64,000 bases of DNA, taken from Saccharopolyspora elongata (lineage in GTDB: Bacteria > Actinomycetota > Actinomycetes > Mycobacteriales > Pseudonocardiaceae). Position numbers and translations under genes: made by a program. Each line of letters starts with the position of its first letter. The first letter of the stretch is position 1. Under the pieces are notes generated by a model. That model was not told where the DNA came from and did not search any database. It saw nothing but the letters and a program-made list of their open reading frames with translations. The stretch is from assembly GCF_004348985.1 (NCBI RefSeq), contig NZ_SMKW01000001.1, forward strand, positions 62,001-126,000, given 5' to 3'. Below, piece after piece: positions 7,274 to 62,218 of this stretch.

Positions 7274-7336
7274 GTGGCGATTTCGCGCGAAATCACCACC
7301 CTGCCCTCGTGCGGAGTGGCGATTTCGCGCGAAATC
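7274..7336. repeat. Pair of TTTCGCGCGAAA palindromes, 42 bp centre to centre
   Basis: Two copies of the 16-bp perfect palindrome GATTTCGCGCGAAATC lie at 7279-7294 and 7321-7336. The first is extended by GGTGG/CCACC flanks with one mismatch. They sit between the convergent DUF1707 gene and the twin P-loop gene. The same core recurs in pairs with the same 42-bp spacing near 40,071 and 62,161. They could be bidirectional terminators, since a TTTC/GAAA stem closes a GCGC loop, or paired protein-binding sites. Confidence 0.85.
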
Positions 7337-7443
7337 GGCAGCCCCCACGTCCCACTCGTGCCCGCACATGAAGAGGTTCCCACCAGGTCGAACCGCCCCT
7401 CGGGGTCGTCGCCCACCCGAACTCGCAAGTTCCCGGCGAAGGA

Positions 7444-8568
7444 TTAGCGCAGATCGCGTTCTGGGGATCCGAGAGCGGGGCGCAGCATGTCGAGTAGCGC
7501 TGCGGAGGTCTCCTGGGGCGACTGGCCCGTGGTGTCGAGGACCATCCGGGGTTCCCCGGAACTTCGCAGCCGCTCCGCCTCCGCCGCCGCTCGGACCGCC
7601 ACCCGGTTCTGCACTTCCGGCGGCACGCCCCGGAGTTCGTCGCCCGCGAGCAGCGCCGACTCGCCATCGGCCCGACGTCGGATGCGGTCTTCCAGCGCAG
7701 CGGCGTCGGCGTCCAACCGGACGACGGTGACGAGTTCCTCCGCCAAGGCGCCCATGAGGTCCGCGCCCGGCTCGCGGGTCACGAGGATCAGCGACTGCGC
7801 CCCGGCCTGCCGGTAGCCGCGCCACAGCGCCGCGAGATTGGCCGCCTGGAGAACGGGATCCGGCCCGGGGTGGACGAATCCGAGCTGGTCGAGGTCGATG
7901 TACGCGGTCGGCGCGCCGCTCTCCCAGAGGTCGCGCAGCACGCTCCACGCGGCGGTCGACTTGCCCACCGCGGTCGCGCCCGTCACGACGACCACCGGCA
8001 TCGGCGGCAACCCGTCGCCCGCGGAGGCCAGCGGCTGCACCGGACCGGGCCGGACGACGCAATGCCCCATCAGGGCATCGACGGTGTCGTCGGGGCGATG
8101 GCCGGTCGTGTCCAGCGGGGTGCCGATCGCCGCGCGGTCGATCCGGTCGACCACCTCGAACAGCTCCCCCAGCATGTCCGCCGGCGAGCCGCGCCCGAGG
8201 AACCGGCTGCGCAGTTCCTCCCGGTCGCAATGCAGCCGCACGAGCGCGAGATCGATGTGGGCCGCCTCGGCGCTACCGGCGAAGAACGGTTCTACGCCCA
8301 GCTCCGGATCCACGACGCCGGACACGATCACCTGCTGCACGCCGCGCTGCCGCAACACTGCGATCACCCGCAGCAGGTTGGCGGCCTTGATCTCATGGCT
8401 CGCCGCGCCCCCGCCGGGTGGTGGCCCGATCAGGCCGAGCTGATCGATGTCGACGTACGCGACGCTGCCGCCCTGCCCGGAGATGCGCGTGAACAGCCCC
8501 CAGCCGGACGTCGACTTCCCCGCTCCAGGCGCACCTGTCACCCAGAGCACCGGAATCTTGCTCCCCAT
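7444..8568 (-). CDS. Tandem P-loop kinase-like ATP-binding protein, 374 aa
   Basis: The protein is an internal duplication of a small nucleotide-kinase-like P-loop domain. Copy one has Walker A GAPGAGKST at 12-20 followed by VAYVDIDQLGL; copy two has GATAVGKST at 197-205 followed by TAYIDLDQLGF. Each copy continues with a helix, an LRVIAVLRQRG/LAALWRGYRQAG region and a candidate lid with Arg residues. This resembles AAA_33/adenylylsulfate-kinase-like proteins often found beside resistance or metabolic genes in actinomycetes; no substrate can be assigned. ATG 8568 begins directly before the first beta strand. The gene ends beside the palindrome pair at 7.3 kb. Confidence 0.8.
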   Translation of the reverse strand: MGSKIPVLWVTGAPGAGKSTSGWGLFTRISGQGGSVAYVDIDQLGLIGPPPGGGAASHEIKAANLLRVIAVLRQRGVQQVIVSGVVDPELGVEPFFAGSAEAAHIDLALVRLHCDREELRSRFLGRGSPADMLGELFEVVDRIDRAAIGTPLDTTGHRPDDTVDALMGHCVVRPGPVQPLASAGDGLPPMPVVVVTGATAVGKSTAAWSVLRDLWESGAPTAYIDLDQLGFVHPGPDPVLQAANLAALWRGYRQAGAQSLILVTREPGADLMGALAEELVTVVRLDADAAALEDRIRRRADGESALLAGDELRGVPPEVQNRVAVRAAAEAERLRSSGEPRMVLDTTGQSPQETSAALLDMLRPALGSPERDLR

Positions 8569-8643
8569 ACCAAGTGAGCTTAGGAACCCCGGTCAACTGA
8601 AATTCCCCGAACGAAGCCAGGAACCACGAGGCGCGGAACGAGA

Positions 8644-9045
8644 TCACCCGCCGATCGCGACGCCGACGACGAACAGGACCAGCATCCCCGCGGCGGTGCC
8701 GAAGACCAGGAGCCGCTGCTTCGCGCTCCATTCGCCCACCGGTGCGCCGTCGACCGCCTGAGCAGCCCTGTCCCGCCGCCCCTGGGCCAGGCTCCGCGGC
8801 ACCAGGACGACCAGCGGCACGGCCAGCACCGCGGTCAGGACCGGCCAGCCGACCATCGCGACCAGCCAGAACCGCATGCCGTTGGCGAAACCACTCGCGT
8901 CGCTGTCCGGGGCGGCGACGACCAGGACCGCGGCCAGCGACAGCAGCGGGGCGAGGATCGCGGCGAGGCCGCACCCCACCACGACTTCCCGGCGCTGCAC
9001 CTCGGTGACGTATCCATCGGGCGTCGGTTCGGACTCCGCCTGCAT
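8644..9045 (-). CDS. Small membrane protein, 133 aa, unknown function
   Basis: Three hydrophobic stretches, approximately residues 20-45, 58-80 and 108-130, predict an integral membrane protein. The N-terminus is MQAESEPTPDGYVTEVQRRE. ATG 9045 is chosen because GGAGG lies about a dozen bases upstream on the minus strand; a longer start at 9093 would add a Cys-rich leader without supporting signal. A 75-bp gap separates its 3' end from the twin P-loop gene, so the two may or may not be cotranscribed. I do not recognise the family. Confidence 0.6.
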   Translation of the reverse strand: MQAESEPTPDGYVTEVQRREVVVGCGLAAILAPLLSLAAVLVVAAPDSDASGFANGMRFWLVAMVGWPVLTAVLAVPLVVLVPRSLAQGRRDRAAQAVDGAPVGEWSAKQRLLVFGTAAGMLVLFVVGVAIGG

Positions 9046-9129
9046 GGGCCAACCCTCCGTCCGGCTCGTGCCTCCTTTGCAGTAGACGCACAAGCGCGGA
9101 CGAGGTTGTTTCCGAAGCTCCGGACTCGC

Positions 9130-9477
9130 TCAGCGGAGCAGGGCCGCGTCCAGTTCCGCCAGCAGTTGCGCCTTCGGCCGGGCGCCGACGACCGCGTGCA
9201 CGGGCCGGCCGTCGCGGAAGAGCATCAGCGTCGGCAGGGACATGACCTGGTATTCCCTTGCGACGAGCGGGTTCTCGTCGGTGTTGACCTTGCGGATGGT
9301 CAGCGAGTCGGCGCGTTCGCGCGCGATCTCGTCGAGGACCGGCGCGATCATGTGGCAGGGCGGGCACCACTTCGCCCAGAAGTCCACCAGGACGGGCTTG
9401 TCGTGCCGGAGGACGTCCCGTTCGAAGGTTTCGTCCGTGACCGCGGAAACCGCGCCGGGAAGGCTGGTGGCCGGCAT
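9130..9477 (-). CDS. trxA: Thioredoxin with WCPPC active site, 115 aa
   Basis: This is a complete thioredoxin fold: strand VLVDFWAKWCPPCHMIAPVL with the redox pair Cys38/Cys41, the cis-Pro region SLPTLMLFRDG near residue 80, and normal length. The dipeptide between the cysteines is PP instead of the GP of classical thioredoxins, which should alter redox potential. Its ATG overlaps the TGA of the upstream MerR gene by one base (TGATG), so the two are translationally coupled. The likely role is cytoplasmic dithiol reduction controlled by the MerR protein. Substrates are unknown. Confidence 0.9.
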   Translation of the reverse strand: MPATSLPGAVSAVTDETFERDVLRHDKPVLVDFWAKWCPPCHMIAPVLDEIARERADSLTIRKVNTDENPLVAREYQVMSLPTLMLFRDGRPVHAVVGARPKAQLLAELDAALLR

Positions 9478-9893
9478 CAGTGCTCCTCTGATTCGTTCGC
9501 TCCATCGGCGTTCCGGTCGGCGACGCCGCACGTCCCGGGGTGCCTCGCCAGCGCCGTGCCGAGCTTGCGGAGCAGGCTCGTCCGCACCGCGTTGAGCTGT
9601 TCGAGGCAGGCATCGACCTCCGCAAGCTTCCGCTGGTAGACGTCGATCGAATCGGCGCACGAGTCCCCCGTCTCGTTGCCCGCGCGCAGGCATTCGACGA
9701 ACGGCCTGGTGTCGTCGAGGCTGAACCCGACGGCTTGCAGCGCCCGGATCTCGTTGACGAGCCGGGCGTCGTCCTCGCCGTACTCCCGGTAGCCGTTCGC
9801 CGAGCGCCGCGCTTCGAGCAGGCCCTGCGCCTCGTAGAACCGCAGCGCACGCGTCGTCGTTCCAACACGTCTGGCCAGCTCACCGATCCGCAT
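9477..9893 (-). CDS. MerR-family regulator, 138 aa
   Basis: The N-terminal winged helix is canonical: MRIGELARRVGTTTRALRFYEAQGLL, then the wing residues SANGYREYGEDD. The dimerisation helix follows, and a C-terminal tail contains Cys in ECLRAGNETGDSCADS and TCGVADRN. These cysteines are candidates for metal or thiol sensing, although the spacing is not that of SoxR. ATG 9893 is the family start; the open frame extends to 9926 only as a leader. It is the first gene of an operon with the thioredoxin, which suggests a redox or metal response. A dyad typical of MerR promoters lies directly upstream. Confidence 0.9.
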   Translation of the reverse strand: MRIGELARRVGTTTRALRFYEAQGLLEARRSANGYREYGEDDARLVNEIRALQAVGFSLDDTRPFVECLRAGNETGDSCADSIDVYQRKLAEVDACLEQLNAVRTSLLRKLGTALARHPGTCGVADRNADGANESEEH

Positions 9894-9908
9894 GGGATCG
9901 AAGTTAAA

Positions 9909-9928
9909 CCTTCCCCTCAGCGTCAAGG
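9909..9928 (-). promoter_or_regulatory. Candidate MerR operator/promoter
   Basis: On the minus strand CCTTGACGCTGAGGGGAAGG precedes the MerR start by 16 bases and is followed by TTTAACTT. It combines a -35-like TTGACG with CCTT/AAGG dyad ends, as in MerR-family promoters that the regulator untwists. It implies autoregulation of the merR-trx operon. No experimental support. Confidence 0.55.
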
Positions 9929-9985
9929 CAACGCTCCGATCCCGCGTCCCCGGCCTTCCGGCCGCGCCGAGCGGCCGGAAAGCAA

Positions 9986-10011
9986 GAATCCCCCGGCAAG
10001 AGGGGGTTTCT
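9986..10011 (-). terminator. Intrinsic terminator-like hairpin behind the SnoaL-like remnant
   Basis: AGAATCCCCC pairs imperfectly with GGGGGTTTCT around a GGCAAGA loop. The same hairpin plus the trailing GCTGTCTCGACCAG recurs at both ends of the AICE, beside the tRNA-Arg 3' end. Confidence 0.6.
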
Positions 10012-10056
10012 GCTGTCTCGACCAGCCACGCGCCCGACCCGAACCAGGCGCGCCCG

Positions 10057-10200
10057 TCAGCGGTAGTCGTTCTCGTTGAGCGGGATCACCCACGCGCGGC
10101 GCTCGCAGATCTTGCCGTCGCGCATGCGGAACACCTCGGCCATCGACATGCGCACCTCCCCACCCGCAGTGCGCTTCGCCGTGCCGTTGAAAGGAACGAG
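10057..10200 (-). pseudogene. C-terminal remnant of a SnoaL/NTF2-like protein
   Basis: Reading the minus strand, the frame ending at the TGA at 10057 gives VPFNGTAKRTAGGEVRMSMA followed by EVFRMRDGKICERRAWVIPL and NENDYR. This is typical of the last strands of SnoaL/NTF2-like polyketide-cyclase or epimerase-fold proteins, which usually have 110-140 residues. Only about 45 residues are present and no N-terminal half is found; the frame breaks near the divergent ArsR control region. I read it as a truncated, non-functional gene. Confidence 0.55.
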
Positions 10201-10205
10201 CTTCC

Positions 10206-10267
10206 TCAACCGCCCGGTTGACAACGGCGAGAAGGTGGCCTAGCTTGATATTCAACCGATTAGTTGA
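10206..10267 (+). promoter_or_regulatory. Two identical ArsR-type operators, 46 bp apart
   Basis: TCAAC-N6-GTTGA occurs twice, at 10206-10221 and 10252-10267. Both arms are identical and only the six-base centres differ (CGCCCG, CGATTA). The second ends nine bases before the GTG of the ArsR gene. Matching dyads upstream of an ArsR gene are strong candidates for its autoregulatory operators. Confidence 0.7.
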
Positions 10268-10276
10268 GGAAGACTG

Positions 10277-10645
10277 GTGAACGAGAGCACGGAGCGGCTC
10301 AACCGGGCGTTCGCGGCACTGGCCGACCCGACCCGGCGCGAACTGGTGGCCCGGCTGGCCGGCGCGGACGCGACCGTGGGCGAGCTGGCCGAGCCTTACG
10401 ACATGAGCCTCCAGGCGATCTCCAAGCACGTGAAGGTGCTCGAGGAGGCCGGCCTGGTGACCCGCAGCAAGGACGCCCAACGCCGACCGGTCCACCTGGA
10501 TGCGGAGGTGTTCGACCTGATGTCGAAGTGGATCGAGCGCTATCGCAGGGAGGCCGAGGAGCGCTACCAGCGCCTCGACGCCCTGCTGGGCCGGATGGCC
10601 GACGAAGAGAACCAGAAACCGAATCGCACGGAGGACGCATCATGA
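10277..10645 (+). CDS. ArsR/SmtB-family repressor, 122 aa
   Basis: A compact winged-helix repressor: LNRAFAALADPTRRELVARL, recognition region MSLQAISKHVKVLEEAGLV, and wing residues RSKDAQRRPVHLDAE. No Cys metal site is present, so it belongs to the non-metal ArsR group that usually travels with SRPBCC genes. GTG 10277 follows the second operator. Its TGA overlaps the ATG of the SRPBCC gene (ATGA), showing translational coupling. It likely represses the three-gene operon 10277-11716 through the two upstream dyads. The inducer is unknown. Confidence 0.9.
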   Translation: MNESTERLNRAFAALADPTRRELVARLAGADATVGELAEPYDMSLQAISKHVKVLEEAGLVTRSKDAQRRPVHLDAEVFDLMSKWIERYRREAEERYQRLDALLGRMADEENQKPNRTEDAS

Positions 10646-11124
10646 CCAAGCACGAGACCCAGATCCTGGCGGACGAGAAGGTTCCGACGATCGAGATCCT
10701 CCGGGAGTTCGACGCGGCGCCCGAGCAGGTGTACCGCGCCCACGTCGATCCCGAGCTCTACGCGCAATGGATCGGTCCGCGTTCGCTGACCACGAGGATC
10801 ATCCGGTGGGACGCTCGCACCGGCGGCTCGTGGGCCTTCGCCAACGATCGCGGCGGCGAGGAGGTCGCCTCCTTCTACGGCAGCTTCCACGAGGTGCGGC
10901 CGAACGAGCGGATCGTGTGGACCTTCACCTACGAAGGCCTGCCCGACGGGGTCGCGCTGGAGACGCTGACCTTCGAGGAACTCGAGGGCGGGCGCACGCG
11001 GCTGCGGACGCTGAGCGTGGTGCAGGACTTCGAGACCCGCGACGGCATCCTGTCCAGCGGCATGGACGTCGGGGTCAACGAGGGCTACGACAAGCTCGAC
11101 GAGCTGCTCGCGAAGAACGCCTGA
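10642..11124 (+). CDS. SRPBCC/AHSA1 domain protein, 160 aa
   Basis: An activator-of-Hsp90-ATPase-like fold: IEILREFDAAPEQVYRAHVD, then PELYAQWIGP (the conserved W-GP loop), the GGSW strand, and the terminal helix GVNEGYDKLDELLAKN. ATG 10642 overlaps the ArsR stop. ArsR-SRPBCC pairs are common in actinobacteria and often behave as a sensor/ligand-binding couple. The cavity ligand cannot be predicted from the sequence. Confidence 0.9.
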   Translation: MTKHETQILADEKVPTIEILREFDAAPEQVYRAHVDPELYAQWIGPRSLTTRIIRWDARTGGSWAFANDRGGEEVASFYGSFHEVRPNERIVWTFTYEGLPDGVALETLTFEELEGGRTRLRTLSVVQDFETRDGILSSGMDVGVNEGYDKLDELLAKNA

Positions 11125-11125
11125 G

Positions 11126-11716
11126 ATGACGACCGCACCCCGAGGCCCGGCCCAGCAGCACGCGTACGACGCCGGCCGGTTCACCGAGCTGGTCGAGTCC
11201 GCCTCGGCCGCCGACTGGGCGCGGCCCAGCCCGGTCGCGGAGTGGACGGCCCTCGACATCGTGAAGCACCTGGTCGAGTGGTCCCGCGGCTTCCTGGCGG
11301 GAGCCGGGATCGAGCTCCCGCCCCTGGACGTCGAGGCCGACCCGGTCGCCGCCTGGAAGCAGCACGTCGCCGACATCCAGGCGATCCTCAACGATCCCGC
11401 CGGGCGGGTGCTCAGCAACCCGCACATCGGCGACGAACCGGTGGACGAGGCGATCGACCGGTTCTACACCGCAGACGTCTGGATGCACACCTGGGATCTC
11501 GCCAAGGCTCTCGGTCGCGAGCCCGCCCTGGGCCAGGAGCGTTGCCGCGTCGCGCTGGCGGCCATGAAGCCCGTGGAGCAGATGCTGCGCGACAGCGGGC
11601 AGTTCGGGGCCGCTGTGCCCATCGCCGACGGGGCCTCCGCGCAGGACGAGCTGATGGCCTTCATCGGCCGCGATCCGGCCTGGCCGTCCACCGGTCGAAC
11701 CGTCGCGAACGACTAG
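11126..11716 (+). CDS. TIGR03086-family DinB-like metal-binding protein, 196 aa
   Basis: The fold is the four-helix DinB/mycothiol-dependent maleylpyruvate isomerase type. Helix 2 carries VAEWTALDIVKHLVEW with a candidate metal His, and a later helix carries FYTADVWMHTWDLAKALG with a second His pair and Asp. The TIGR03086 family is frequent in mycothiol-producing actinobacteria. The gene begins one base after the SRPBCC stop and is therefore the third gene of the ArsR operon. Mycothiol-linked chemistry is plausible but not proven. Confidence 0.85.
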   Translation: MTTAPRGPAQQHAYDAGRFTELVESASAADWARPSPVAEWTALDIVKHLVEWSRGFLAGAGIELPPLDVEADPVAAWKQHVADIQAILNDPAGRVLSNPHIGDEPVDEAIDRFYTADVWMHTWDLAKALGREPALGQERCRVALAAMKPVEQMLRDSGQFGAAVPIADGASAQDELMAFIGRDPAWPSTGRTVAND

Positions 11717-11726
11717 CTCGCTCCCG

Positions 11727-11786
11727 TTGACATATACCCCCTAGAGGTATATAAATCCTCCCGGCATGAATACCCCCTCGGGGTAT
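11727..11786 (+). promoter_or_regulatory. Consensus sigma-70 promoter overlapped by CsoR-like dyads
   Basis: TTGACA (11727-11732) and TATAAA (11750-11755) are 17 bp apart, an ideal housekeeping promoter. The spacer holds the near-palindrome ATATACC...GGTATAT (11732-11752), and ATACCCCCTCGGGGTAT (11770-11786) lies just downstream of the expected start. TACCCC/GGGGTA dyads are typical of CsoR/DUF156 regulators of copper or reactive sulfur. No CsoR gene lies in this window. Confidence 0.7.
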
Positions 11787-11822
11787 GCAGCGGTGACTGC
11801 GGTCGCCCGGGAGGAGACGGAC

Positions 11823-13334
11823 ATGGGACTGTTCGCGATTCGCGACTACCGGCGGCTGTTCAGCGCTCAAGTCATCGCGCTGTTCGGCACCGGCCTGGCC
11901 ACCGTCGCGCTGGGCCTGCTCGCGTACGAGCTCGCAGGCCCGCGGGCCGGCGCGGTTCTCGCCACCGCGCTGACGATCAAGATGGTCGCGTACGTGGTCG
12001 TCGCACCTCTAGCGGCCGCGTACGTCGACCGGCTGCCCAGGCGTTGGTTCCTCACGCTCCTCGACGTGGTGCGCGCTCTGGTGGTGATCGCGCTGCCGTT
12101 CGTCACCGAGGTGTGGCACATCTACGTCCTGATCGGGGTCCTCCAGACCGCGTCAGCGGCGTTCACGCCGACGTTCCAGGCGGTCATCCCCGACATCGTG
12201 ACCGAGGAGGCCGACTACACCCGCGCGCTGTCCGCATCGCAGGTGGCCTCCACCATGGAGAGCCTGCTGAGCCCTGTGCTCGCGGCGGTGGCGCTCACCT
12301 TCATGTCGTTCAACCTGCTGTTCCTCGGCACCTCCGCCGGGTTCGCCGTGTCCGCGCTGCTGGTCCTGTCCACGCGCATCCCCAACGCGCGCCCCAGCTC
12401 GCACGCGAACGCCTGGGACCGGGCCGTGGCGGGGATCCGCACCTTCGCGGCCACCCCGAGCCTGCGCGGCGTCATGGCGCTGAACCTCGTGGTCGCCGCC
12501 GCCGGCTCCATCGTGGTCGTCAACACCGTGAACTACGTCCGCGACGTCCTCGGCGGAACCCAATCCGACGTGGCCTGGATGCTCGCCGCGTCCGGAACGG
12601 GGACGCTGCTGGTAGCCCTCGTCCTCCCGCGCGTCCTGGACCGGGTGGCGGACCGGTTCGTGATGCTGATCGGTGCCGCGGTGCTGGTGCTCGCGGTCGG
12701 CGCGGCGGTCACGACATCCGCGGCGAGCGTCGCCGCAGCACTGCCGACCGGGGTGATCTGGGTGGCGATCGGCGGCGGGATGGCGCTGATCATCACGCCG
12801 ACCGGGCGGGTGCTCCGCCGGGCGGTCGATCCCACCGGAATTCCCGAGGTCTTCGCCGCCCAGTTCTCGCTGTCCCACCTGGCCTGGCTGGTGACCTACC
12901 CCATCGCCGGATGGGTCGCCACGCAAGCGGGCTTCACGATCACCTGGACCGTGCTGGCGGGCCTGGCGGTAATCGGAGCCATCACGGCACTGGCGGCCTG
13001 GCCGCGCAACGAGAAGGCCGAAGCCGAAGAGCGTGCGGCAGTGGCGGTCACGCAGCACGGCGAGACAGTTGAAGCCGAAGGGCGTGCGGCAGTGGGTGTG
13101 CCGCGCGACGAGACAGTTGAGACCGGAGGACGTACGGCAGTGGGTGTGCCGCGCGACGAGACAGTTGAGACCGGAGGACGTACGGCAGTGGCGGTCCAGC
13201 CGCGCATCCGGAAGGCCGAGGCCCAAGCCCACGTCGCGGTGGCGGTCGCGACCGAGGTCGCCACCCGGGAAGCCGCAGAAGCCGCGGAGGGCACGCTCGC
13301 GGCATCCCAGTGCGCCTGCGTCCGCACCATCTGA
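11823..13334 (+). CDS. MFS exporter (EntS-like) with repetitive C-terminal tail, 503 aa
   Basis: The first ~400 residues form twelve membrane helices of the enterobactin-exporter-like MFS branch (MGLFAIRDYRRLFSAQVIAL, then helix 2 and YVDRLPRRWF in the 2-3 loop). From about residue 400 the protein continues into a hydrophilic tail of ~100 residues. It contains an Ala/Val/Glu repeat, two copies encoded by identical 48-bp units. ATG 11823 is preferred over 11766 because GGAGGA precedes it and the second operator lies upstream of it. A promoter with CsoR-like dyads suggests induction by copper or sulfur stress. Substrate unknown. Confidence 0.85.
   Translation: MGLFAIRDYRRLFSAQVIALFGTGLATVALGLLAYELAGPRAGAVLATALTIKMVAYVVVAPLAAAYVDRLPRRWFLTLLDVVRALVVIALPFVTEVWHIYVLIGVLQTASAAFTPTFQAVIPDIVTEEADYTRALSASQVASTMESLLSPVLAAVALTFMSFNLLFLGTSAGFAVSALLVLSTRIPNARPSSHANAWDRAVAGIRTFAATPSLRGVMALNLVVAAAGSIVVVNTVNYVRDVLGGTQSDVAWMLAASGTGTLLVALVLPRVLDRVADRFVMLIGAAVLVLAVGAAVTTSAASVAAALPTGVIWVAIGGGMALIITPTGRVLRRAVDPTGIPEVFAAQFSLSHLAWLVTYPIAGWVATQAGFTITWTVLAGLAVIGAITALAAWPRNEKAEAEERAAVAVTQHGETVEAEGRAAVGVPRDETVETGGRTAVGVPRDETVETGGRTAVAVQPRIRKAEAQAHVAVAVATEVATREAAEAAEGTLAASQCACVRTI
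13092..13187 (+). repeat. Two identical 48-bp in-frame tandem units in the MFS tail
   Basis: Units 13092-13139 and 13140-13187 match base for base and encode VGVPRDETVETGGRTA twice; a degenerate related unit precedes them. Perfect identity implies a recent duplication, and the 16-codon unit keeps the frame, so copy number may vary between strains. Confidence 0.9.
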
Positions 13335-13368
13335 GGCCGCCGGCCAACACCGCGTAGAACTCCGTTGA

Positions 13369-13419
13369 GGACGAGCACTTCTCGCCCACCGGTCAGCCGG
13401 GAGCGAGAAGTGCTCGTCC
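13369..13419 (+). terminator. Terminator hairpin after the MFS exporter
   Basis: Seventeen-base perfect arms (13369-13385 GGACGAGCACTTCTCGC and 13403-13419) enclose a 17-base loop, 34 bp after the MFS stop codon. Confidence 0.8.
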
Positions 13420-13546
13420 ATCGGTTTGCGCACAACACGAGTGATCGGGCTGCCGAACCGAACGGCATTCATCCCGCCCGGGCGCACATCGATGAACGAC
13501 TGAGAGAGGCATCACACCACGCGCGCCGAAAAGACCCGAGACAGCA

Positions 13547-13574
13547 AGAAGCCCCCTGCAAGAGGGGGCTCCTA
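13547..13574 (-). terminator. Hairpin beside attL, left over from the tRNA-Arg locus
   Basis: AGCCCCCT and AGGGGGCT pair around a short loop. Directly to the right lies the displaced tRNA-Arg 3' half (attL), so this was the native terminator of the tRNA gene before integration. Confidence 0.6.
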
Positions 13575-15024: not shown

Positions 15025-15026
15025 GC

Positions 15027-39374: not shown

Positions 39375-39908
39375 TCACCCCACCACGTGCTTCGCGATCG
39401 TGCGGAGCACATCCCGCAGCCCCTCGCGGACCTGCGGATCCTCGATCGTCTCGTCGGACCCGACGGCGCCGCGCGGAACGGTCAGGCGGACGCAGGCCGC
39501 ATCGATGATGTCGGTGCTCAGGTAGCCCAGGACCGTCCTGAGCGTCTCGGACGCGCCGTTCCCGCGCCCCTCCGGAGCGACGTTGACCCAGGCCACCGGC
39601 TTCTCGTGCATCTCCGAGCCGCCGACGGTCCAGTCGAGCAGGTTCTTGAAGCTGCCGGGCAGCGTGCCCGCGTATTCCGGCGTGCAGAACAGCAACGCGT
39701 CCGCCGAAGCGATCCGGCCGCGCAGATCAGCGGCAGGTGCGGGCAGCGAATCGGTGTCCTGGTCGGGGTTGAACGCCGGAAGCTCGGCCAGCCCCTCGTA
39801 GAGCGCGACCGTCACGCCGTCCGGCGCGGCCTCCAGCGCGGTGCGCAGCGCAGCGGTGTTCGTCGAACCGCTCCGCGTGCTGCCCGTGACCAGCAAGATC
39901 TCGACCAC
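39375..39908 (-). CDS. NADPH-dependent FMN reductase-family flavoprotein, 177 aa
   Basis: Flavodoxin-like fold: EILLVTGSTRSGSTNTAALR with the FMN phosphate loop, LLFCTPEYAGTLPGSFKNLL, typical of the family, and DWTVGGSEMHEKPVAWVNVA. It would reduce FMN, quinones, chromate or azo dyes with NAD(P)H. GTG 39908 has GGAGAGG seven bases upstream. A cluster of palindromes lies between it and the hydrolase gene. Confidence 0.88.
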   Translation of the reverse strand: MVEILLVTGSTRSGSTNTAALRTALEAAPDGVTVALYEGLAELPAFNPDQDTDSLPAPAADLRGRIASADALLFCTPEYAGTLPGSFKNLLDWTVGGSEMHEKPVAWVNVAPEGRGNGASETLRTVLGYLSTDIIDAACVRLTVPRGAVGSDETIEDPQVREGLRDVLRTIAKHVVG

Positions 39909-39946
39909 TGCCCCACCTCTCCCGGCCCGGCATTCGCCGTGCAACA

Positions 39947-40216
39947 TCCCGATTTTGCCTAAAATCGGGAGCCTTCGACGGGCCCCGGTGCTCCTCCCGG
40001 CTTTCCCTGCAGGGGCGTTCCAGAACGGCGGGCAAGACGTGACCGCCTGGAACGCGGAGCGCCGGTTTCGCGCGAAACCGGCGCTCCACGTGAGGGCGGG
40101 GCGCCGGTTTCGCGCGAAAACGTCACCGGCGCCGGGCACCCGGCGACCTGGGCAGGGAGCCTTCGGCGCGCGTCGAGGACTCCGTGGAGGCCTCCCGATT
40201 TTGCCTAAAATTGGGA
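39947..40216. repeat. Palindromic island: two TCCCGATTTT hairpins around a TTTCGCGCGAAA pair
   Basis: Four palindromes in 270 bp. TCCCGATTTT-GCCT-AAAATCGGGA at 39947-39970 and a one-mismatch copy at 40193-40216 enclose two TTTCGCGCGAAA cores centred at 40071.5 and 40113.5. The first core is the centre of a perfect 32-bp palindrome (40056-40087, starting GGAGCGCCGG). The whole gap between the FMN reductase and the hydrolase is otherwise empty. Confidence 0.85.
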
Positions 40217-40238
40217 AGGTCCTCTGGAACCCGGGCCG

Positions 40239-41312
40239 TCACGGGTTCTCGAAGCGGACTTCCGGGTAGCGCGGGGACGGGCCGTCCAGCAGGTGCTGCG
40301 GCCGGCCCCGCAGGTGCAGGTCCACGAACGCGGCGACGTAGTCCCTGGTGATCCGGGCCGTGCGATCGCCGGTCATCGGCTCGTCTCCCACGTCGATCCC
40401 CATCTGCTCCGCCAGGATCGAGTAGTCCGTGAACGACGAATGTGCTGTGCCCGCAACGGAAAGCCAGCGCTTCCAGCCCGTCAGGTGCGGCCAGCTGGCG
40501 TCCCAGGTTTCGTCCGCGCCCGGCCGACCGTGCTTGTCCGCGCCCAGCATCAGGAACGGGCGGTCGAGGTCCTCGGTCAACTCCGGCCGGAAGGTCCCGT
40601 CCATGTTGACCCCGGCGCGGATCCGCGGGTCTTCCCGCACCGCGTGCGCCGCGGCCGCGCCGCCCAGGGAATGGCCGGCCATCGCGATGCGGTCCGCGTC
40701 GATCAGGCCCGATCCGGTCAGCTCGTCGATCACGAACGAGACGTCGATCGCACGGTTCCGCGCGATGGTCGGCCCGTCCGGTTTCGTTTCGCAGATGAGG
40801 CATTCGGTGATCCGGCCATCCGGGAACGTGATCGCGCTCGCCTCGTAGGTGTGGTCCACGGCCGCGACGGCGTAGCCGCGGCTGGCGAGGTCCTCGGCCA
40901 GCCCGGTCAGCGACGAGCGCGAGAAGCTGTGTCCGGGCGAGAGCACCACCAGCGGCAATTTCCGGTCCAGCGGCTCCGCATCCGCCACCGCATGGGTGCG
41001 GGTCGTGCTCAGGATCTCCTCGGGAACCCCGGTCACCCGCAGGCCCGCCAGGATCAGGCGCGACTCCTCGGGCGTGACGTACTCGGCGCGCGGCCCGTCG
41101 CGGTCCTCGGTCGGGTAGAACAGCGACACCATCAGCTCGCGGTTCTCCTGCGGCACCCACGGATCGGGGCGGTCGTGGTCGACCAGGTGCAGCGTGGTCT
41201 TGCCGACCGCGAGCGGGCCGGTCGGTTCGGGGAGTGCGAGGCGCGCGGGCTCGGCCACCGCCGCCGGGGCCAGCAGGACGCCTGCCGCTACCGCGGCTAT
41301 CAGAGTTTTCAT
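40239..41312 (-). CDS. Secreted alpha/beta hydrolase, PAF-acetylhydrolase-like, 357 aa
   Basis: A signal peptide (MKTLIAAVAAGVLLAPAAVA, cleavage after residue ~20) and an alpha/beta hydrolase with nucleophile Ser215 in GHSLGG, acid Asp in VNMDGTF and His in GTAHSSFTD near residue 300. The LVVLSPGHSFSR oxyanion segment and the W/P-rich N-terminal part resemble plasma PAF-acetylhydrolase or large bacterial lipases. It probably acts on esters outside the cell. It is transcribed into the palindrome island. Confidence 0.85.
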   Translation of the reverse strand: MKTLIAAVAAGVLLAPAAVAEPARLALPEPTGPLAVGKTTLHLVDHDRPDPWVPQENRELMVSLFYPTEDRDGPRAEYVTPEESRLILAGLRVTGVPEEILSTTRTHAVADAEPLDRKLPLVVLSPGHSFSRSSLTGLAEDLASRGYAVAAVDHTYEASAITFPDGRITECLICETKPDGPTIARNRAIDVSFVIDELTGSGLIDADRIAMAGHSLGGAAAAHAVREDPRIRAGVNMDGTFRPELTEDLDRPFLMLGADKHGRPGADETWDASWPHLTGWKRWLSVAGTAHSSFTDYSILAEQMGIDVGDEPMTGDRTARITRDYVAAFVDLHLRGRPQHLLDGPSPRYPEVRFENP

Positions 41313-55837: not shown

Positions 55838-57202
55838 GTGGGATCGGTAAAGGACGAGCTTCAGACGCTGACCGGCTGGGGGCGCACCGCGCCCACCAGG
55901 GCGCACGTCGTCAGCACCCCGGACGTCGAGGCGATCGCCAAGGCGGTCCGCGAGGCCGGTGAGCGCGGCGTCATCGCGCGCGGCCTGGGCCGCAGCTACG
56001 GCGACCCGTCGCAGAACGCGGGCGGCACCGTCATCGACATGACCGCCCTCGACCGGGTGCACCAGATCGACGTCGACAACGCGACCGTCGTCGTCGACGC
56101 GGGCGTGTCGTTGGACACGCTGATGCGCCAGCTGCTGCCGCACGGCCTGTGGATCCCGGTGCTGCCGGGCACCCGCCAGGTCACCATCGGCGGCGCCATC
56201 GGCTCGGACATCCACGGCAAGAACCACCACTCGCAGGGCTCGTTCGGCAGTCACGTGCTGTCGCTGGACCTGCTCACCGCCGACGGCGAGGTCCGCACGC
56301 TGACCCCGGACGGCGAGGGCGCCGAGCTGTTCTGGGCCACGGTCGGCGGCATGGGCCTGACCGGCATCATCACCAGGGCGACGATCAAGCTCAAGCGCGT
56401 CGAGACCGCGTACTTCCTGGTCGACAACGTGCAGACGAAGAACCTCGACGAGCTGATCGAGCACTTCACCGACGGCTCGGACGACAACTACGTCTACTCG
56501 GTCGCCTGGTTCGACTCGCTGGCCCGCGGCGACAAGCTGGGCCGCGCGCTGCTGACCCGCGGCAACTCGGCCCGGATCGAGGACCTGCCGAAGAAGCTGC
56601 GCAAGGATCCGCTGAAGTTCAACGCGCCGCAGCTGATGACCGCCCCGCCGATCTTCCCCAACGGCCTGGTCAACAAGTTCACCATCACCGCGTTCAACGA
56701 GGTCTGGTACCGCAAGGCACCGACGAAGTTCGGCCTCGTGCAGAACATCACCCAGTTCTTCCACCCGCTGGACCTCGTCGGCGAGTGGAACCGGGTGTAC
56801 GGCTCGAACGGCTTCCTGCAGTACCAGTTCATGGTGCCCTTCGGGCAGGAGGCGATGTTCCGCCGCTCGATCGACAAGATCAGCTCGTCCGGCCACGTGT
56901 CGTTCCTGAACGTGCTCAAGACCTTCGGCGAGGGCAACCAGGCGCCGATGTCGTTCCCGCGCAAGGGCTGGACGCTGACCGTCGACATCCCGATCACGCC
57001 GGGCCTGGACCGGTTGTGCCGGGAGCTCGACGAGATGGTGCTGAACGCGGGCGGCCGGTTGTACCTGGCCAAGGAGTCCCGCACGTCGGCCGAGATGATC
57101 GAGCAGATGTACCCGCGGATCGAGGAGTGGCGGAAGATCCGCGCCTCGGTCGACCCGGAGGGCATCTTCCGCTCCGACCTCTCCCGGAGGCTCAGTCTCT
57201 GA
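55838..57202 (+). CDS. DprE1-like FAD oxidase, first paralogue, 454 aa
   Basis: Two-domain FAD-linked oxidase: [31 protein letters not shown] with [15 protein letters not shown] for FAD binding, and ALO-type C-terminal half. The equivalent of the benzothiazinone-target Cys (C387 in M. tuberculosis) is Thr381 in [10 protein letters not shown], while the catalytic Lys is kept (Lys412, [10 protein letters not shown]). About two thirds identical by eye to the next gene. TAGACT at 55825-55830 seven bases before GTG 55838 predicts a leaderless transcript. TGA overlaps the next ATG. Confidence 0.85.
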
Positions 57203-58563
57203 TGACCGCGTTCGAAACCAAGGAACTCTTCGGCTGGGGCCGCACCGCGCCGACTCAGGCGCGCGTGCTGAGCACCACCGACGTCGGGAAGATCGCCGAG
57301 GCGGTGCGCACGGCCGATGAGCGCGGCGTCCTCGCCCGCGGCCTGGGCCGCAGCTACGGCGACGTCGCGCAGAACGCCGGCGGCGTGGTCGTCGACATGA
57401 CCCGGCTGAACCGGATCCACGACATCGACCCGGACACCGCGATCGTGGACGTGGACGCCGGCGTCAGCCTGGACCAGCTGATGAGGGCGGCGCTGCCGCA
57501 CGGCCTGTGGGTCCCGGTGCTGCCGGGCACCCGGCAGGTGACCATCGGCGGCGCGATCGCCAACGACATCCACGGCAAGAACCACCACAGCGCGGGCAGC
57601 TTCGGCAACCACGTGCTGTCGATGGACCTGATCACCGCGGACGGACAGGTCCGGACGGTGACGCCGGACGGCGACGAGTCGGACCTGTTCTGGGCGACCG
57701 TGGCGGGCATCGGCCTCACCGGCATCATCATCCGGGCCAAGATCAAGATGACCCGGACCGAGACCGCGTACTTCGTGGCCGACCTCGAGCGCACCGACAA
57801 CCTCGACGAGACGTTGGAGCTGGTCAGCAACGGTTCCGAGGACAGGTACACGTACTCCTCGGGCTGGTTCGACGCCATCTCCACCGGCCCCAAGCTGGGC
57901 CGCGCCGCGTTCAGCCGCGGCTCGCTGGCCAAGCTGGACGAGCTGCCGCCGAAGCTGCGCGCGGACCCGCTGAAGTTCGACGCGCCCAAGCTGGCGACGC
58001 TGCCCGACGTATTCCCCAACGGGCTGGCCAACAAGCTGACCTTCAGCGCGCTCGGCGAGGCGTGGTTCCGCAAGTCGCCCAAGCGCAAGCTCGGCGTGGT
58101 GGAGAACCTGACCGCCTTCTACCACCCGCTGGACATGTTCGGCGAGTGGAACCGGGCCTACGGCTCCAAGGGCTTCCTCCAGTACCAGTTCAGCACGCCG
58201 CTGAACGCGCACGAGGACCTGCGCCGGATCCTGCTGCGGATCGCGCACTCCGGGCACTACTCGTTCCTCAACGTCTTCAAGCAGATGGGCGAGGGCAACC
58301 GGGCGCCGCTGTCGTTCCCGCACCCCGGCTGGATGGTCTGCGTCGACTTCCCGATCAAGCCGGGCCTCTCCCGGCTGTGCTCCGATCTCGACGAGATGGT
58401 GCTCGGCATCGGCGGCCGGCTCTACACCGCGAAGGACTCGCGGACCACGGCGGAGACGTTCCACCAGATGTATCCGCGAGTCGACGAGTTCCGCAAGATT
58501 CGCCAATCCGTTGACCCCGAAGGCATTTTCGCTTCAGACATGAGCCGGAGGCTTGAGCTGTGA
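57202..58563 (+). CDS. dprE1: Decaprenylphosphoryl-ribose 2'-oxidase DprE1, 453 aa
   Basis: Closest of the pair to mycobacterial DprE1: [29 protein letters not shown] with Cys380 at the benzothiazinone-reactive position, and [20 protein letters not shown] with Lys411. It oxidises decaprenyl-phospho-ribose to the 2-keto intermediate using FAD. ATG 57202 overlaps the preceding stop, and the stop overlaps the dprE2 GTG, so the three are one translationally coupled operon making DPA, the sole arabinan donor. Confidence 0.92.
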
Positions 58564-59321
58564 TCGACGCCGTTGGAAACCCCCAGTCCCTGCTCGTCCT
58601 CGGCGGGACCTCCGACATCGCCTTGGCGACGGCGCAGAAGTACGCCGACCAGCGCCCGTTGCGCATCATCCTCGCGGACCGCCCGGAGGAGCAGGAGCGC
58701 TTGGACGCGGCCGCCGAGCGGCTGCGCAAGACCGGCAGCACGGTGTCGATCCTGACGTTCGACGCCCGCAAGCCGGAGACGCACGCCGAGGTCATCGACA
58801 AGGCCTTCGCCGACGGAGACGTCGACGTCACGCTGATCGCCTTCGGCATCCAGGGCGACAACGAGAAGGGCTGGACCGACGTCGAGGCGGCCCGTGCGGT
58901 GGCCGACATCAACTACCTGGCCCCGGTGTCGCTGGGCGTGCTGCTGGCCGAGAAGCTGCGCAAGCAGGGCCACGGCAACGTCGCGGTGATGTCCTCCCCC
59001 GCCGGTGAGCGCGCGCGGCGGTCGAACTTCGTCTACGGCTCCTCGAAGGCCGGCCTGGACGTGTTCTTCTCCGGCCTGGGCTACGCGCTGGAGGAGCACG
59101 GCGTCAAGGTGACCGTCGTGCGGCCGAACTTCACCCACACCAAGCTCACCGAGGGCATGAAGGCCGCGCCGATGGCGAACACCCCGGAAAGCGTCGCCGA
59201 GGTGATCGTGAACGGCGTTCGCAAGGGCAGCCCGCTGGTGTACGCCCCCGCGCAGTTCCGGTTCGTGATGTCGATCCTGCGGCACGTGCCGCGCGCCATC
59301 TTCCGCCGCCTGCCGATCTGA
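58560..59321 (+). CDS. dprE2: Decaprenylphosphoryl-2-keto-ribose reductase DprE2, 253 aa
   Basis: SDR fold: [20 protein letters not shown] with the NAD(P) glycine loop, [20 protein letters not shown] and the catalytic Tyr-x3-Lys in [14 protein letters not shown]. It reduces the DprE1 product to decaprenyl-phospho-arabinose. GTG 58560 overlaps the dprE1 stop. Homologous to Rv3791. A hairpin follows. Confidence 0.93.
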
Positions 59322-59334
59322 TCGGTTTTCCGCG

Positions 59335-59363
59335 GGGCCGCCGGGGCAACGCCTCGGCGGCCC
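59335..59363 (+). terminator. Terminator of the dprE operon
   Basis: GGGCCGCCG pairs with CGGCGGCCC, beginning 14 bp after the dprE2 stop codon. Confidence 0.8.
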
Positions 59364-59592
59364 TTCGACGTTGCGGGAGCGTTGGGCGGCACGGGGATTC
59401 GGCTTCCGCAGTGGGCCGTCCGCGTGAAACCGCAGCATTCGGGGGAAGGGATACCCCTGCGATTCCGAGGGTTATCCCGCGCGTTCCCCGTTCTGCACGA
59501 AAACAGGGCGGTCGTCGTGAAGAATCGGGAAGCAGCACGGGTGCGCACCACGATGGCACCGCCAACCCGATTCCGCGCCGCGCGAGGGCCAG

Positions 59593-60423
59593 ATGTCCGC
59601 CGAACAACCGAAACGCTCCCGCGAGATCAAGCCCGATCACGTGATCCTGGCGTTCCGCGTGATCGCGCACCTGGTCTTCCCGTGGCTCGCCGCCAGGTTC
59701 GTGTACAAACCGCGCGTCGGACGGCAACGGCGGGACCGGGTGCTGGATCGGCTGGCGTTCTGGCGGTCGGCGGTCGGCCTGCTCGCGGTGCTGGCGGCGA
59801 CCAACGCCTACCTCTCGCCGTTCATGGTCTTGGGCGACAACTACGCCAAGGCGTTGCGCACCGCGGCATTCGCCATGCTGGCCGCGCCGCTGCCGTTCCT
59901 GGTACTGCTCGCCGTGACCCGATCCGGGTACCGCTACGAACTCCTCCCGGGCGGTCGGCGCATGTTGGGTCGAGGGGCGCTCGCACTGGCAGCGTTCGCG
60001 CTGCCGCTGGCCTTGCTCTTCGCCACCGACGGCGGCAGCTACGAGGTCACCACGCTGGCAGGGCTGCTCGTCGCGTTGATCGTGGTGGCCGTGATCGGCT
60101 GGTACGCGGCCTTCTGCCTCTGCACGCTTTACTGGGCCGCTCGCACCAGCTTCTGGATCAGCGAGATCCACCCGCTGCTAGCACCGGTCGCCTCGTCGTT
60201 CTTCGTGCTGCTGATCACCGGGCAGGAGATCATCAGCCTCGACACCAAGGGCGTGCCCGCTCCGCTGTGGCTCGGACTGAACCTCTGCGGGGTGGCCTCG
60301 ACGTTGGTGCTCGCCGTCTTCGAGTACCGGCACGCCTGGTTGACCGGTTACCGGTTCCGCGGTGGACCGCGGCCGGTGGCCGCGCCAGCGCACCGGGATG
60401 GAACGGAGCCGACCGGGCGGTAA
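59593..60423 (+). CDS. Multi-pass membrane protein, unknown, 276 aa
   Basis: Six or seven hydrophobic segments (LAFWRSAVGLLAVLAATNAY, AFAMLAAPLPFLVLLAV, GALALAAFALPLALLFAT, LLVALIVVAVIGWYAAFCLC, HPLLAPVASSFFVLLIT, LCGVASTLVLAVFE). The basic N-terminus (RFVYKPRVGRQRRDRVLDRL) is cytoplasmic. ATG 59593. No family recognised. Position after dprE2 suggests an envelope role, but the terminator between them argues for a separate transcript. Confidence 0.6.
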   Translation: MSAEQPKRSREIKPDHVILAFRVIAHLVFPWLAARFVYKPRVGRQRRDRVLDRLAFWRSAVGLLAVLAATNAYLSPFMVLGDNYAKALRTAAFAMLAAPLPFLVLLAVTRSGYRYELLPGGRRMLGRGALALAAFALPLALLFATDGGSYEVTTLAGLLVALIVVAVIGWYAAFCLCTLYWAARTSFWISEIHPLLAPVASSFFVLLITGQEIISLDTKGVPAPLWLGLNLCGVASTLVLAVFEYRHAWLTGYRFRGGPRPVAAPAHRDGTEPTGR

Positions 60424-60589
60424 CGATAGGCGCAGAAATTTCGCTCCGGAGGCAACGTTTCGAGGCGCTCCGGCGATCATCGATGTGACGGCGCTGTTAA
60501 GGCGTTCCGTCCGATATGTGACTTCCCGACGCGCTTCGCGCAGAGGAAGCGCGGATGCCCGGCGAAGTGGGGTTCATCGGGTGCCCGTG

Positions 60590-60634
60590 TCCGTGGGTCC
60601 TCCACCTGCCCATAACGTCTGGAGGACCCACGGA
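60590..60634 (+). terminator. Hairpin upstream of the LGFP gene
   Basis: Fifteen-base perfect arms, TCCGTGGGTCCTCCA (60590-60604) and complement (60620-60634). It may end the membrane-protein transcript or lie in the LGFP leader. Confidence 0.7.
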
Positions 60635-60740
60635 ACGCACCGATTCTGCCCGTCGGTCCGTTCGGGGGAAAACCGCGAATCCGGGCAACCTGCGGGGGTC
60701 TTTCGGCGATCACCGGATGACCTGACCGAAAGGGTTGCGA

Positions 60741-62042
60741 GTGAACGTCAAACGACTCGTGGCGGCCGTGGCCGCCACCGCAGCGATCACCGGGCTGGCC
60801 ACCGCCGCACCGGCGGTCGCGCAGACCGAACCGACGACCTCGGCGCCGAGCACGTCCGCCGAGGTCCCGAGCGAGCCGACCACGTCGGCGCCCGTCGAAC
60901 CGACCACGTCGGCACCTGGCGAGCCGACGACTTCCGCGCCGTCCGAGCCGACGACATCGGCTCGTGCTGAGCCGACGACATCGGCGCCGGGCGAAGCCGA
61001 TCCGGGCGAGGGCGCGATCCAGCAGCGCTACGAATCGATGTCCGCCGAGGAGAAGGCGCAGGTCGGCGCGCCCGCCGGGCACGAGGTCGTCGAGGACGAG
61101 GGCCTGCGCTGGCAGGACTTCGAGAACGCCCGCTTCTACTGGACTCCCGACACCGACGTGACGGTCGTGCGCGGGATGATCTACCTGGGGTTCCTGGAGC
61201 GCGGCGGGCACGACGCGCTGGGCGTGCCGATCACCGACGAGCTGGCCAGCAGCGGCGGCGGCCGGTACAGCGACTTCCTGACCCGCGACGGCGTGATCCA
61301 CTCGGCCATCTACTGGTCGACGCGCACCGGCGGGCACCTGGTCGTGGGCCCGATCCTGGAGCACTTCCGCGAGCTCGGCGAGGACGCCCGCTTCGGCTAC
61401 CCGGCGACCGACACGCGGCTCACGCCGGACGGTTTCGGCGCCTACAACCACTTCCTGACGCCGAACGCCCAGCACGAGGACGCGTCGATCTACTGGACGC
61501 AGCCGTCCGGGCCGAACGCGGTGCAGGGCGCGATCCGGGAGAAGTGGGCGGCCACCGGCTGGGAACGCGGCCCGCTGGGCTTCCCGGTCACCGACGAACT
61601 GTCCACACCGGACGGTGTGGGGCGCTACAACCGGTTCAACGGCGACGGCAGCTTCCCGGCCGGGATCGTGTGGAGCCCGCAGACCGGCGCGCACTCGGTG
61701 CAGGGCGTGATCGCGCAGCGCTACATCGAGCTGAGCGGCCCGGCGGGCGTGCTCGGCTACCCGACCACCGATGAGCTCGGCACGCCCGACGGGCGGGGCC
61801 GCTTCAACCACTTCACCGGCACCGGCGGGGCGTCGATCTACTGGACGCCGCAGACCGGCGCGCACGAGGTGTACGGCGGCATCCGCGCCCGCTGGTCGCA
61901 GCTCGGCTGGGAGCGCTCCTACCTGGGCTATCCGGTGACGGGCGAGCACGACGTCCCGCAGGGCCGGGCGAGCGAGTTCGAGCACGGCTCCATCGAGTGG
62001 CACCGCGAAGGCGGCCAGGTGGTCGACGTCCCGAAGGGCTGA
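60741..62042 (+). CDS. Secreted LGFP-repeat surface protein, 433 aa
   Basis: Signal peptide (cleaved after APAVAQ, residue ~28), then a low-complexity stalk of EPTTSAP repeats (residues ~30-85). Six or more LGFP-type repeats of ~50 residues follow (GVPITDEL, GYPATDTR, GFPVTDEL, GYPTTDEL, GYPVTGEH). LGFP repeats anchor proteins to the mycolate/arabinogalactan layer in corynebacteria. No enzyme domain is attached, so it is probably structural. GTG 60741 with AAAGGG upstream. Confidence 0.88.
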   Translation: MNVKRLVAAVAATAAITGLATAAPAVAQTEPTTSAPSTSAEVPSEPTTSAPVEPTTSAPGEPTTSAPSEPTTSARAEPTTSAPGEADPGEGAIQQRYESMSAEEKAQVGAPAGHEVVEDEGLRWQDFENARFYWTPDTDVTVVRGMIYLGFLERGGHDALGVPITDELASSGGGRYSDFLTRDGVIHSAIYWSTRTGGHLVVGPILEHFRELGEDARFGYPATDTRLTPDGFGAYNHFLTPNAQHEDASIYWTQPSGPNAVQGAIREKWAATGWERGPLGFPVTDELSTPDGVGRYNRFNGDGSFPAGIVWSPQTGAHSVQGVIAQRYIELSGPAGVLGYPTTDELGTPDGRGRFNHFTGTGGASIYWTPQTGAHEVYGGIRARWSQLGWERSYLGYPVTGEHDVPQGRASEFEHGSIEWHREGGQVVDVPKG

Positions 62043-62148
62043 GCAGGGGCGGGCAACCGGAGATCGGCGGGGCGATTTCCGGTTGCCCGCGTGCGTGGCG
62101 TCGAATTCATGGCGGACTTCGAGACCGCCATTTCGACGTGCCGTGCGG

Positions 62149-62218
62149 GTGGCGATTTCGCGCGAAATCGCCACTTCTCAGGCGTGGCGAACGGCGATTT
62201 CGCGCGAAATCGCCGTTC
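62149..62218. repeat. Pair of TTTCGCGCGAAA palindromes, 42 bp centre to centre
   Basis: Perfect palindromes of 26 bp (62149-62174, arms GTGGCGATTTCGC) and 30 bp (62189-62218, arms beginning GAACGGCGATTTC) around the same core, centres 61.5 and 203.5, exactly 42 bp apart. Between the convergent LGFP and GT-C genes. The flanks differ between the two but stay self-complementary. Confidence 0.9.

What the first reader, a model, noticed from the sequence alone, without database searches (positions are those of the whole stretch)
7274..62218. Dispersed TTTCGCGCGAAA palindromes always in pairs exactly 42 bp apart
Cores centred at 7286.5/7328.5, 40071.5/40113.5 and 62161.5/62203.5 give the same 42.0-bp spacing at three unrelated loci 20-30 kb apart. 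Forty-two bp is four helical turns. Flanks differ between copies but stay self-complementary in most (up to a perfect 32-bp palindrome at 40056-40087), so palindromicity itself seems to be selected. Two loci lie between convergent gene ends; the third lies behind a minus-strand gene. Simple terminators would not need a fixed pair spacing. Paired dimer binding on one DNA face, or a duplicated REP/RAYT-type element, would explain it.
Basis: seen in the sequence. Interest (0 to 1): 0.85.

Follow-up and report, generated by a model that had tools for sequence, protein, structure and literature searches.

The report
Selected palindrome doublets in Saccharopolyspora genomes
The window holds three of some 150 copies of a short double palindrome scattered between the genes of a soil actinomycete; the copies come and go like tiny mobile repeats, yet those that stay keep 18 of 22 letters almost unchanged, as if a still unknown protein reads them.

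Summary
The six TTTCGCGCGAAA cores are real. The own genome (genus Saccharopolyspora) holds 341, control 0. In 942,572 sampled bases, 33 of 40 clusters hold two or more copies, and all 39 neighbour distances within 75 bp are 40-42 bp. "Always in pairs, exactly 42" is therefore nearly right.

None of 38 clusters lies in a gene; 16 of 104 convergent, 19 of 285 tandem and 1 of 136 divergent gaps carry one. The full unit is GNCGNTTTCGCGCGAAANCGNC: of 85 copies with at most 3 mismatches, 70 match all 18 fixed positions. In 15 copies aligned with a close species, fixed positions differ at 2 of 270 sites while flanks differ by 8.1%; a second palindrome family in the same regions shows no constraint, 24 of 180. 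Yet 6 of 16 comparable loci have no copy in that species.

Doublets with other centres and spacings fill other genomes of the genus and family. No RAYT link and no second ParB was found.

Best reading: REPIN-like mobile doublets whose palindrome is a two-fold site kept by selection, reader unknown. Spacing is family-specific (24-60 bp), so "four helical turns" is not general.

The parts
7276..7297 (.). palindrome 1a, GGCGATTTCGCGCGAAATCACC (22-bp unit; one fixed position differs)
7298..7317 (.). linker of doublet 1, CCTCG type; centre-to-centre 42 bp
7318..7339 (.). palindrome 1b
7218..7232 (.). remnant of the left terminal repeat GTCGTTTCAGAATGG of the ~178-bp carrier element (weak; right end not recognised)
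   Evidence: by alignment only; not among the six intact carriers
40061..40082 (.). palindrome 2a; perfect symmetry extends to 40056-40087 (32 bp)
40083..40102 (.). linker of doublet 2, CACGTGAGGG type
40103..40124 (.). palindrome 2b (position 1 mismatched, G.A)
40014..40028 (.). remnant of a carrier terminal repeat (3 mismatches to GTCGTTTCAGAATGG, counted by eye)
62151..62172 (.). palindrome 3a
62173..62192 (.). linker of doublet 3, CAGGCGTGG type
62193..62214 (.). palindrome 3b

Best explanation
A family of extragenic palindrome doublets that behaves like a REPIN or BIME population without a RAYT. The unit is a 22-bp two-fold site GNCGNTTTCGCGCGAAANCGNC; two units 40-42 bp apart are the copied element, which explains the fixed distance. 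Some doublets ride in a terminal-repeat carrier of 170-179 bp. Copies are gained, lost and tandemly multiplied between close species (shown). While a copy stays, 18 of its 22 positions are held and two positions per half drift (shown by ortholog comparison). Inferred: the held positions are read by a sequence-specific dimeric factor, each subunit reading CGCGAAANCGNC on double-stranded DNA; copies settle or survive behind gene ends because they do least harm, or some good, there. The factor's identity, and whether it moves the element or uses it, are unknown.
For: Copy number, extragenic place, doublets. Fixed versus free positions in 158 half-sites: pos2 C 157, pos3 G 152, pos5 C 154; pos1 C60/A48/T46/G4; pos4 G67/C62/T22/A7. 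Scan not conditioned on the core: 70 copies perfect at 18 positions, 7 with one mismatch, 5 with two, 3 with three, Markov control 0/0/0/1, whereas the AATG/CATT family shows a decay tail. Orthologs: fixed positions 2/270, pos1 8/30, pos4 3/30, flanks 8.1% of 4433 columns; AATG/CATT 24/180. Turnover: of 16 loci with both flanks placed, 10 have at least one copy in G018 and 6 none; 3- versus 4-unit array at C110:2304. Carriers: six elements bounded by GTCGTTTCAGAATGG-type ends, 170, 177, 178, 179, 179 and 128 bp. Pairing is not obligatory: about 45% of palindromes are mispaired at position 1 (36 of 79) or 4 (35 of 79).
Against: No binding protein was found. Position 4 keeps an excess of equal halves (42 of 59 without T, shuffled mean 26.1), and so does position 1 in G018 (14 of 19, mean 9.2), so some pressure towards symmetry or pairing exists (only position 1 in G000 looks random, 23 of 53, mean 22.8). 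Ortholog copies were chosen for an intact TTTCNNNNGAAA in G000, and gapped alignments were dropped; at half the flank divergence the expectation is 11.0 and P is 0.001 instead of 3e-8. Homogenisation among copies could mimic selection. At position 1 changes are mostly A-C exchanges, odd for free drift.
Confidence: 0.45

Rival explanations
1. Purely selfish REPIN or MITE population: the palindromes are ends recognised as hairpins by an unidentified transposase in trans, with no use to the host; their uniformity reflects recent copying from a master.
For: Species-specific masters and copy numbers from 0 to 178 pairs in the genus; homogeneous families in G006 and G009; a clean 44-bp insertion of the sister AATG/CATT element in G000; terminal-repeat carriers; strong folding of all three window doublets, z -5.6 to -6.4.
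Against: Resident orthologous copies should decay at the flank rate; GCGC copies do not, AATG/CATT copies do. Positions 1 and 4 are nearly saturated, so the GCGC family is not young.
Confidence: 0.25
2. Tandem RNA hairpins at gene ends: bidirectional transcription terminators or mRNA 3'-end protectors.
For: Convergent and tandem gaps preferred; in tandem gaps 16 of 19 lie nearer the upstream gene end; stable folds.
Against: No run of T follows the stems (sequence; the scan of 39900-40300 found no terminator-like site). About 45% of copies are mispaired at position 1 or 4 while neighbouring letters are fixed, which a pure pairing constraint does not predict. The unconstrained AATG/CATT family has the same placement, so placement may only mean that promoters are avoided.
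Confidence: 0.17
3. Homogenisation: gene conversion or hairpin template switching among about 340 copies keeps the core identical and swaps the variable positions.
For: Symmetric switches at aligned loci: C110:102066 and C44:81143 carry differently composed but each symmetric palindromes in the two species, the latter 36 bp and perfect in G018; position 1 changes mostly between letters already in the pool.
Against: Linkers and flanks of shared loci stay locus-specific, so tracts would have to be only about 22 bp; the AATG/CATT family with the same architecture is not homogenised.
Confidence: 0.08
4. Sites of a ParB/Noc-like protein for chromosome organisation (parS and the Noc site also have TTTC-N4-GAAA).
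For: Shared TTTC....GAAA frame (consensus sites in PMC7383237, passages). All palindrome families pooled are rare in the region opposite parB: 1 versus 19 clusters in 200 kb each of G006, with 116 versus 130 gaps; in G001, 26 of 34 loci lie within a quarter chromosome of parB, assuming 8.2 Mb.
Against: Only one ParB match in G000, G018, G013, G009, G007 and G005; extra weak ones in G001, G004, G006 and G019 do not follow the element. The depletion is carried mostly by the unconstrained AATG/CATT family; the GCGC family alone has 2 clusters against 0 there, so it more likely mirrors old versus fast-changing chromosome regions.
Confidence: 0.05

Closest known systems
REPINs (REP doublets forming hairpins; PMC3116915, passages)
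   Same: Extragenic, high copy, inverted doublets with a family-specific fixed distance (71 and 110 bp in P. fluorescens SBW25), ends more conserved than the spacer, tandem clusters, species-specific.
   Different: Each unit here is itself symmetric, no RAYT is associated, and orthologous copies show constraint with two drifting positions per half.
GTAG- and CGTC-tagged REPs (PMC3733652, abstract and passages)
   Same: Dimers with spacers of similar length, preference for convergent and unidirectional gaps; CGTC REPs also lack a known transposase.
   Different: No GTAG or CGTC tag; symmetric palindrome with conserved GAAANCGNC halves; the word Actinobacteria does not occur in that paper's main text.
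Bacterial MITEs
   Same: Some doublets lie in 170-179 bp carriers with 15-bp terminal inverted repeats.
   Different: Most sampled doublets show no such ends; target-site duplication not established.
parS and Noc-binding sites
   Same: TTTC-N4-GAAA two-fold site.
   Different: Outer positions NCGNC, hundreds of copies in doublets, no second ParB; the four true parS sites of the genome are distinct, near parB.

Membership tests
REPIN / REP (RAYT-dependent) | extragenic palindromes in high copy | tested here: met
   341 copies; 0 of 38 clusters in genes
REPIN / REP (RAYT-dependent) | doublet with fixed distance as main form | tested here: met
   33 of 40 clusters multiple; 39 of 39 distances 40-42
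REPIN / REP (RAYT-dependent) | GTAG or CGTC tag beside the palindrome | tested here: not met
   flanks are NCGNC on both sides
REPIN / REP (RAYT-dependent) | RAYT (Y1 transposase) in the genome, near repeats | tested here: not met
   9 of 22 genomes have Y1_Tnp, without matching element presence; own copies fragmentary or with stops; no palindrome in 17 regions with 19 of 35 matches
MITE | terminal inverted repeats bounding a constant length | tested here: inconclusive
   met for six carriers in the sample, not seen for most doublets
MITE | target-site duplication and empty site | tested here: inconclusive
   no clean empty site for GCGC doublets; one clean 44-bp insertion for the AATG/CATT sister family, duplication ambiguous
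ParB/Noc site | cognate ParB-family paralogue | tested here: not met
   one match in the own genome
intrinsic terminator | GC-rich stem followed by a T run | tested here: not met
   sequence of all three loci; scan run on one locus only
intrinsic terminator | RNA 3' ends at the site | not testable with these tools
   no transcript data for this species

The most novel reading that the evidence does not exclude
Pseudonocardiaceae carry a superfamily of two-fold DNA sites with halves of the form GAAA-N-YG-N-C around a species-specific four-base centre, spread as mobile doublets and then held by selection behind gene ends across a genome, read by an undescribed dimeric protein: a RAYT-free, domesticated REPIN-like system in which site centre and reader would co-evolve from species to species.
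Probability: 0.3. Interest if true: 0.85.

Novelty: new variant of a known kind. Interest (0 to 1): 0.6.

Why it matters
Why bacteria tolerate hundreds of extragenic palindromes is an old question. Here one family in a genome is constrained in place while a look-alike family beside it is not, so use and mere tolerance can be compared in the same cells. The motif is sharp enough for a direct bait experiment to find its reader.

Tried and rejected
RAYT link: rejected on distribution and neighbourhood; 16 of 35 Y1 matches (15 in G006, 1 in G020) were not looked at.

Second ParB or Noc: rejected.

Kissing loops or one obligatory long stem between the two palindromes: attractive for G005 and G006, where left and right centres are complementary, but genomes of genus g38 mix non-complementary centres in one doublet.

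Compensatory pairing as proof of an RNA hairpin: the excess of paired letters at position 1 in G000 comes from a T-type subfamily; without T it equals chance. At position 4, and at position 1 in G018, an excess remains, so this was left open.

Origin-side enrichment as sign of a nucleoid function: real for all families pooled, but shared by the unconstrained family, so not used as support.

Larger carrier of about 230 bp (first reading): corrected to 170-179 bp. A palindrome near C1:12237 of G006 turned out to lie in an overlapping-ORF stretch that is repeated at C1:50196; a plasmid search with it found nothing: dead end.

Literature: searches found no description of these repeats in the held open-access library; the 12-mer appears there in one paper only, on mammalian E2F sites (listing only). 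Papers: PMC3733652 seen as abstract, section list and passages; PMC3116915, PMC8049555, PMC7383237 and PMC3610266 as passages; all others as listings.
Full report
What was checked. The six copies and their coordinates are exact. The window is contig C110:62001-126000 of a 10.3-Mb draft genome, which holds 341 copies of the 12-mer against 0 for the backwards pattern, and 150 pairs spaced 30-60 bp. The genus is Saccharopolyspora: a doublet pattern found 19 stretches in named genomes, all Saccharopolyspora (S. shandongensis, S. indica, S. soli, S. kobensis). Relative G018 shares two contig lengths (203,800 and 159,442) with S. shandongensis CGMCC 4.3530, so I take it to be that species.

Anatomy. 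From 942,572 bases of the own genome: 79 copies, 40 clusters (7 single, 30 double, 2 triple, 1 sixfold), distances 40:1, 41:13, 42:25. In 540,000 bases of G018: 27 copies, distances 40:1, 41:5, 42:5, 43:1. Outside the 12-mer each half continues N-C-G-N-C: positions 2, 3 and 5 are nearly fixed, positions 1 and 4 nearly free. Scanning for the 18 fixed positions without demanding the core gives 70 perfect copies, 7 with one mismatch, 5 with two and 3 with three, with Markov controls 0, 0, 0 and 1. The linker falls into two broad types by motif (16 and 21 of 37 pairs with full flanks). Six first-type copies lie in a carrier with 15-bp terminal inverted repeats, five of 170-179 bp and one of 128 bp.

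Place. My gene caller gives 713 genes in 816,739 bases. Of 38 clusters 16 are in convergent gaps, 19 in tandem, 1 in divergent, 2 at sequence ends, 0 in genes. By gaps: 16 of 104 convergent, 19 of 285 tandem, 1 of 136 divergent (Fisher, convergent against divergent, p 8e-6); in gaps of 100-600 bp 12 of 63, 16 of 173 and 1 of 101; in tandem gaps 16 of 19 are nearer the upstream gene's end. The sister family AATG/CATT has the same placement.

Relatives. In the genus, 11 of 22 genomes have GCGC doublets. With any four-base centre, 67 of 297 genomes of the family have at least one pair; 26 have five or more, 14 of 22 in the genus and 12 of 275 outside it. Many of the listed single pairs are true parS (TTTCACGTGAAA); the listing is capped. 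Centres and spacings differ: GCGC at 38 in G004, AATT at 41 in G013, several centres at 54-56 in G005 and G010, GCGA/TCGC at 38 in G006 and GTAC at 38 in G009, 59-60 in G001, ACGT at 33 and 41 in G290, GCGC at about 43 in G091, G179 and G210. By eye the halves in these families mostly fit GAAA-N-YG-N-C; G004, with GAAATTCGA, does not fit well. A scan for perfect or near-perfect palindromes without a chosen sequence puts GAAA at positions 3-6 first in all six genomes sampled, 185 of 1526 halves in the own genome, next best 58. A strict pattern built on the own genome found nothing in 395 other genomes of the phylum, none of them from the same family, so this shows only that the strict form is not widespread.

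Orthologs. G018 shares long syntenic stretches at about 92-98% identity. Of 20 GCGC clusters on C110 and C44, 16 have both flanks placed: 5 have as many or more exact cores in G018, 5 have fewer but at least one, and 6 have none; of the other four, two are present, one is absent within 700 bp of its only flank, and one has no flank hit. Of all 104 TTTCNNNNGAAA sites examined, 37 could be aligned without gaps, 62 were absent or gapped and 5 had no flank. In the 15 GCGC palindromes aligned, the 18 fixed positions differ at 2 of 270 sites, position 1 at 8 of 30 and position 4 at 3 of 30, flanks by 8.1% of 4433 columns; both fixed-position changes are in one decaying array copy. AATG/CATT: 24 of 180, expected 14.7. 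AATT: 2 of 144, expected 5.7, not decisive. parS: 1 of 72. Because copies were chosen intact in one species, half the divergence is the fair yardstick (expected 11.0, P 0.001). Gapped alignments hide one more single-mismatch copy (C44:51129) and three loci with one intact palindrome in place of two.

Mechanism. Shown: the doublet is the repeated unit, it turns over between close species, and resident palindromes are constrained at 18 of 22 positions. Inferred: recognition of double-stranded DNA by a dimer, because letters rather than pairing are held: 36 of 79 palindromes are mispaired at position 1 and 35 of 79 at position 4. Against this, equal halves are in excess at position 4 and, in G018, at position 1, and the doublets fold well as RNA (z -5.6, -6.4, -6.1). 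Two loci carry differently composed but symmetric palindromes in the two species, which hints at hairpin-templated rewriting.

Chromosome distribution. In G006 none of the 50 listed pairs (of 71) lies between 0.92 and 3.03 Mb of a 9.44-Mb contig whose parB is at 6.51 Mb. Samples of 200 kb gave 1 cluster there and 19 near parB, with 116 and 130 gaps; the single one and at least one of the 19 look like chance, and most of the 19 belong to the unconstrained family. I read this as old against fast-changing chromosome regions, not as function.

Verdict. Observation sound; interpretation partly right. A new variant of the REP/REPIN kind with unusual in-place constraint and an unknown reader.

Noticed in passing
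window 42593, 45543, 55138: Three copies of a 44-48 bp element CCGCAATTTCAATGGAAATCG...CGATTTCCATTGAAATTGCGG (centres AATG/CATT, 24 bp apart); genome-wide it behaves as an unconstrained miniature element with a clean insertion polymorphism at C44:121739.
   Followed up: partly
window 39947-39970 and 40193-40216: Two copies of TCCCGATTTTGCCTAAAATYGGGA lie one on each side of the second GCGC doublet; this is a further palindrome family (ATTTT-GCCT-AAAAT).
   Followed up: no
L054 855-1489 and L055 (G005): Large inverted repeats with nested palindromes (177-bp arms, inner GACAGTTTTCATGAAAACTGTC copies, 62-bp direct repeats outside); the paired double hairpins lie about 329 bp apart.
   Followed up: partly
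G018 c58/c94/c74, several intergenic loci: Where G000 has a small AATG/CATT element, G018 often has an insertion of roughly 230-300 bp, in places inside or beside AATTTCAATG...CATTGAAATT ends: a larger, unclassified repeat that may be a longer relative.
   Followed up: no
G000 C110:296215-299135: Four true parS sites (TTTCACGTGAAA) around parB at 298206, conserved in G018.
   Followed up: partly
window 13001-13195: Four imperfect 48-bp tandem copies.
   Followed up: no
G290, G279 (genus g16): Doublets whose core TTTCACGTGAAA equals the parS core but with outer base C/G instead of G/C; 71 pairs in G290, so its ParB may face many near-sites.
   Followed up: no
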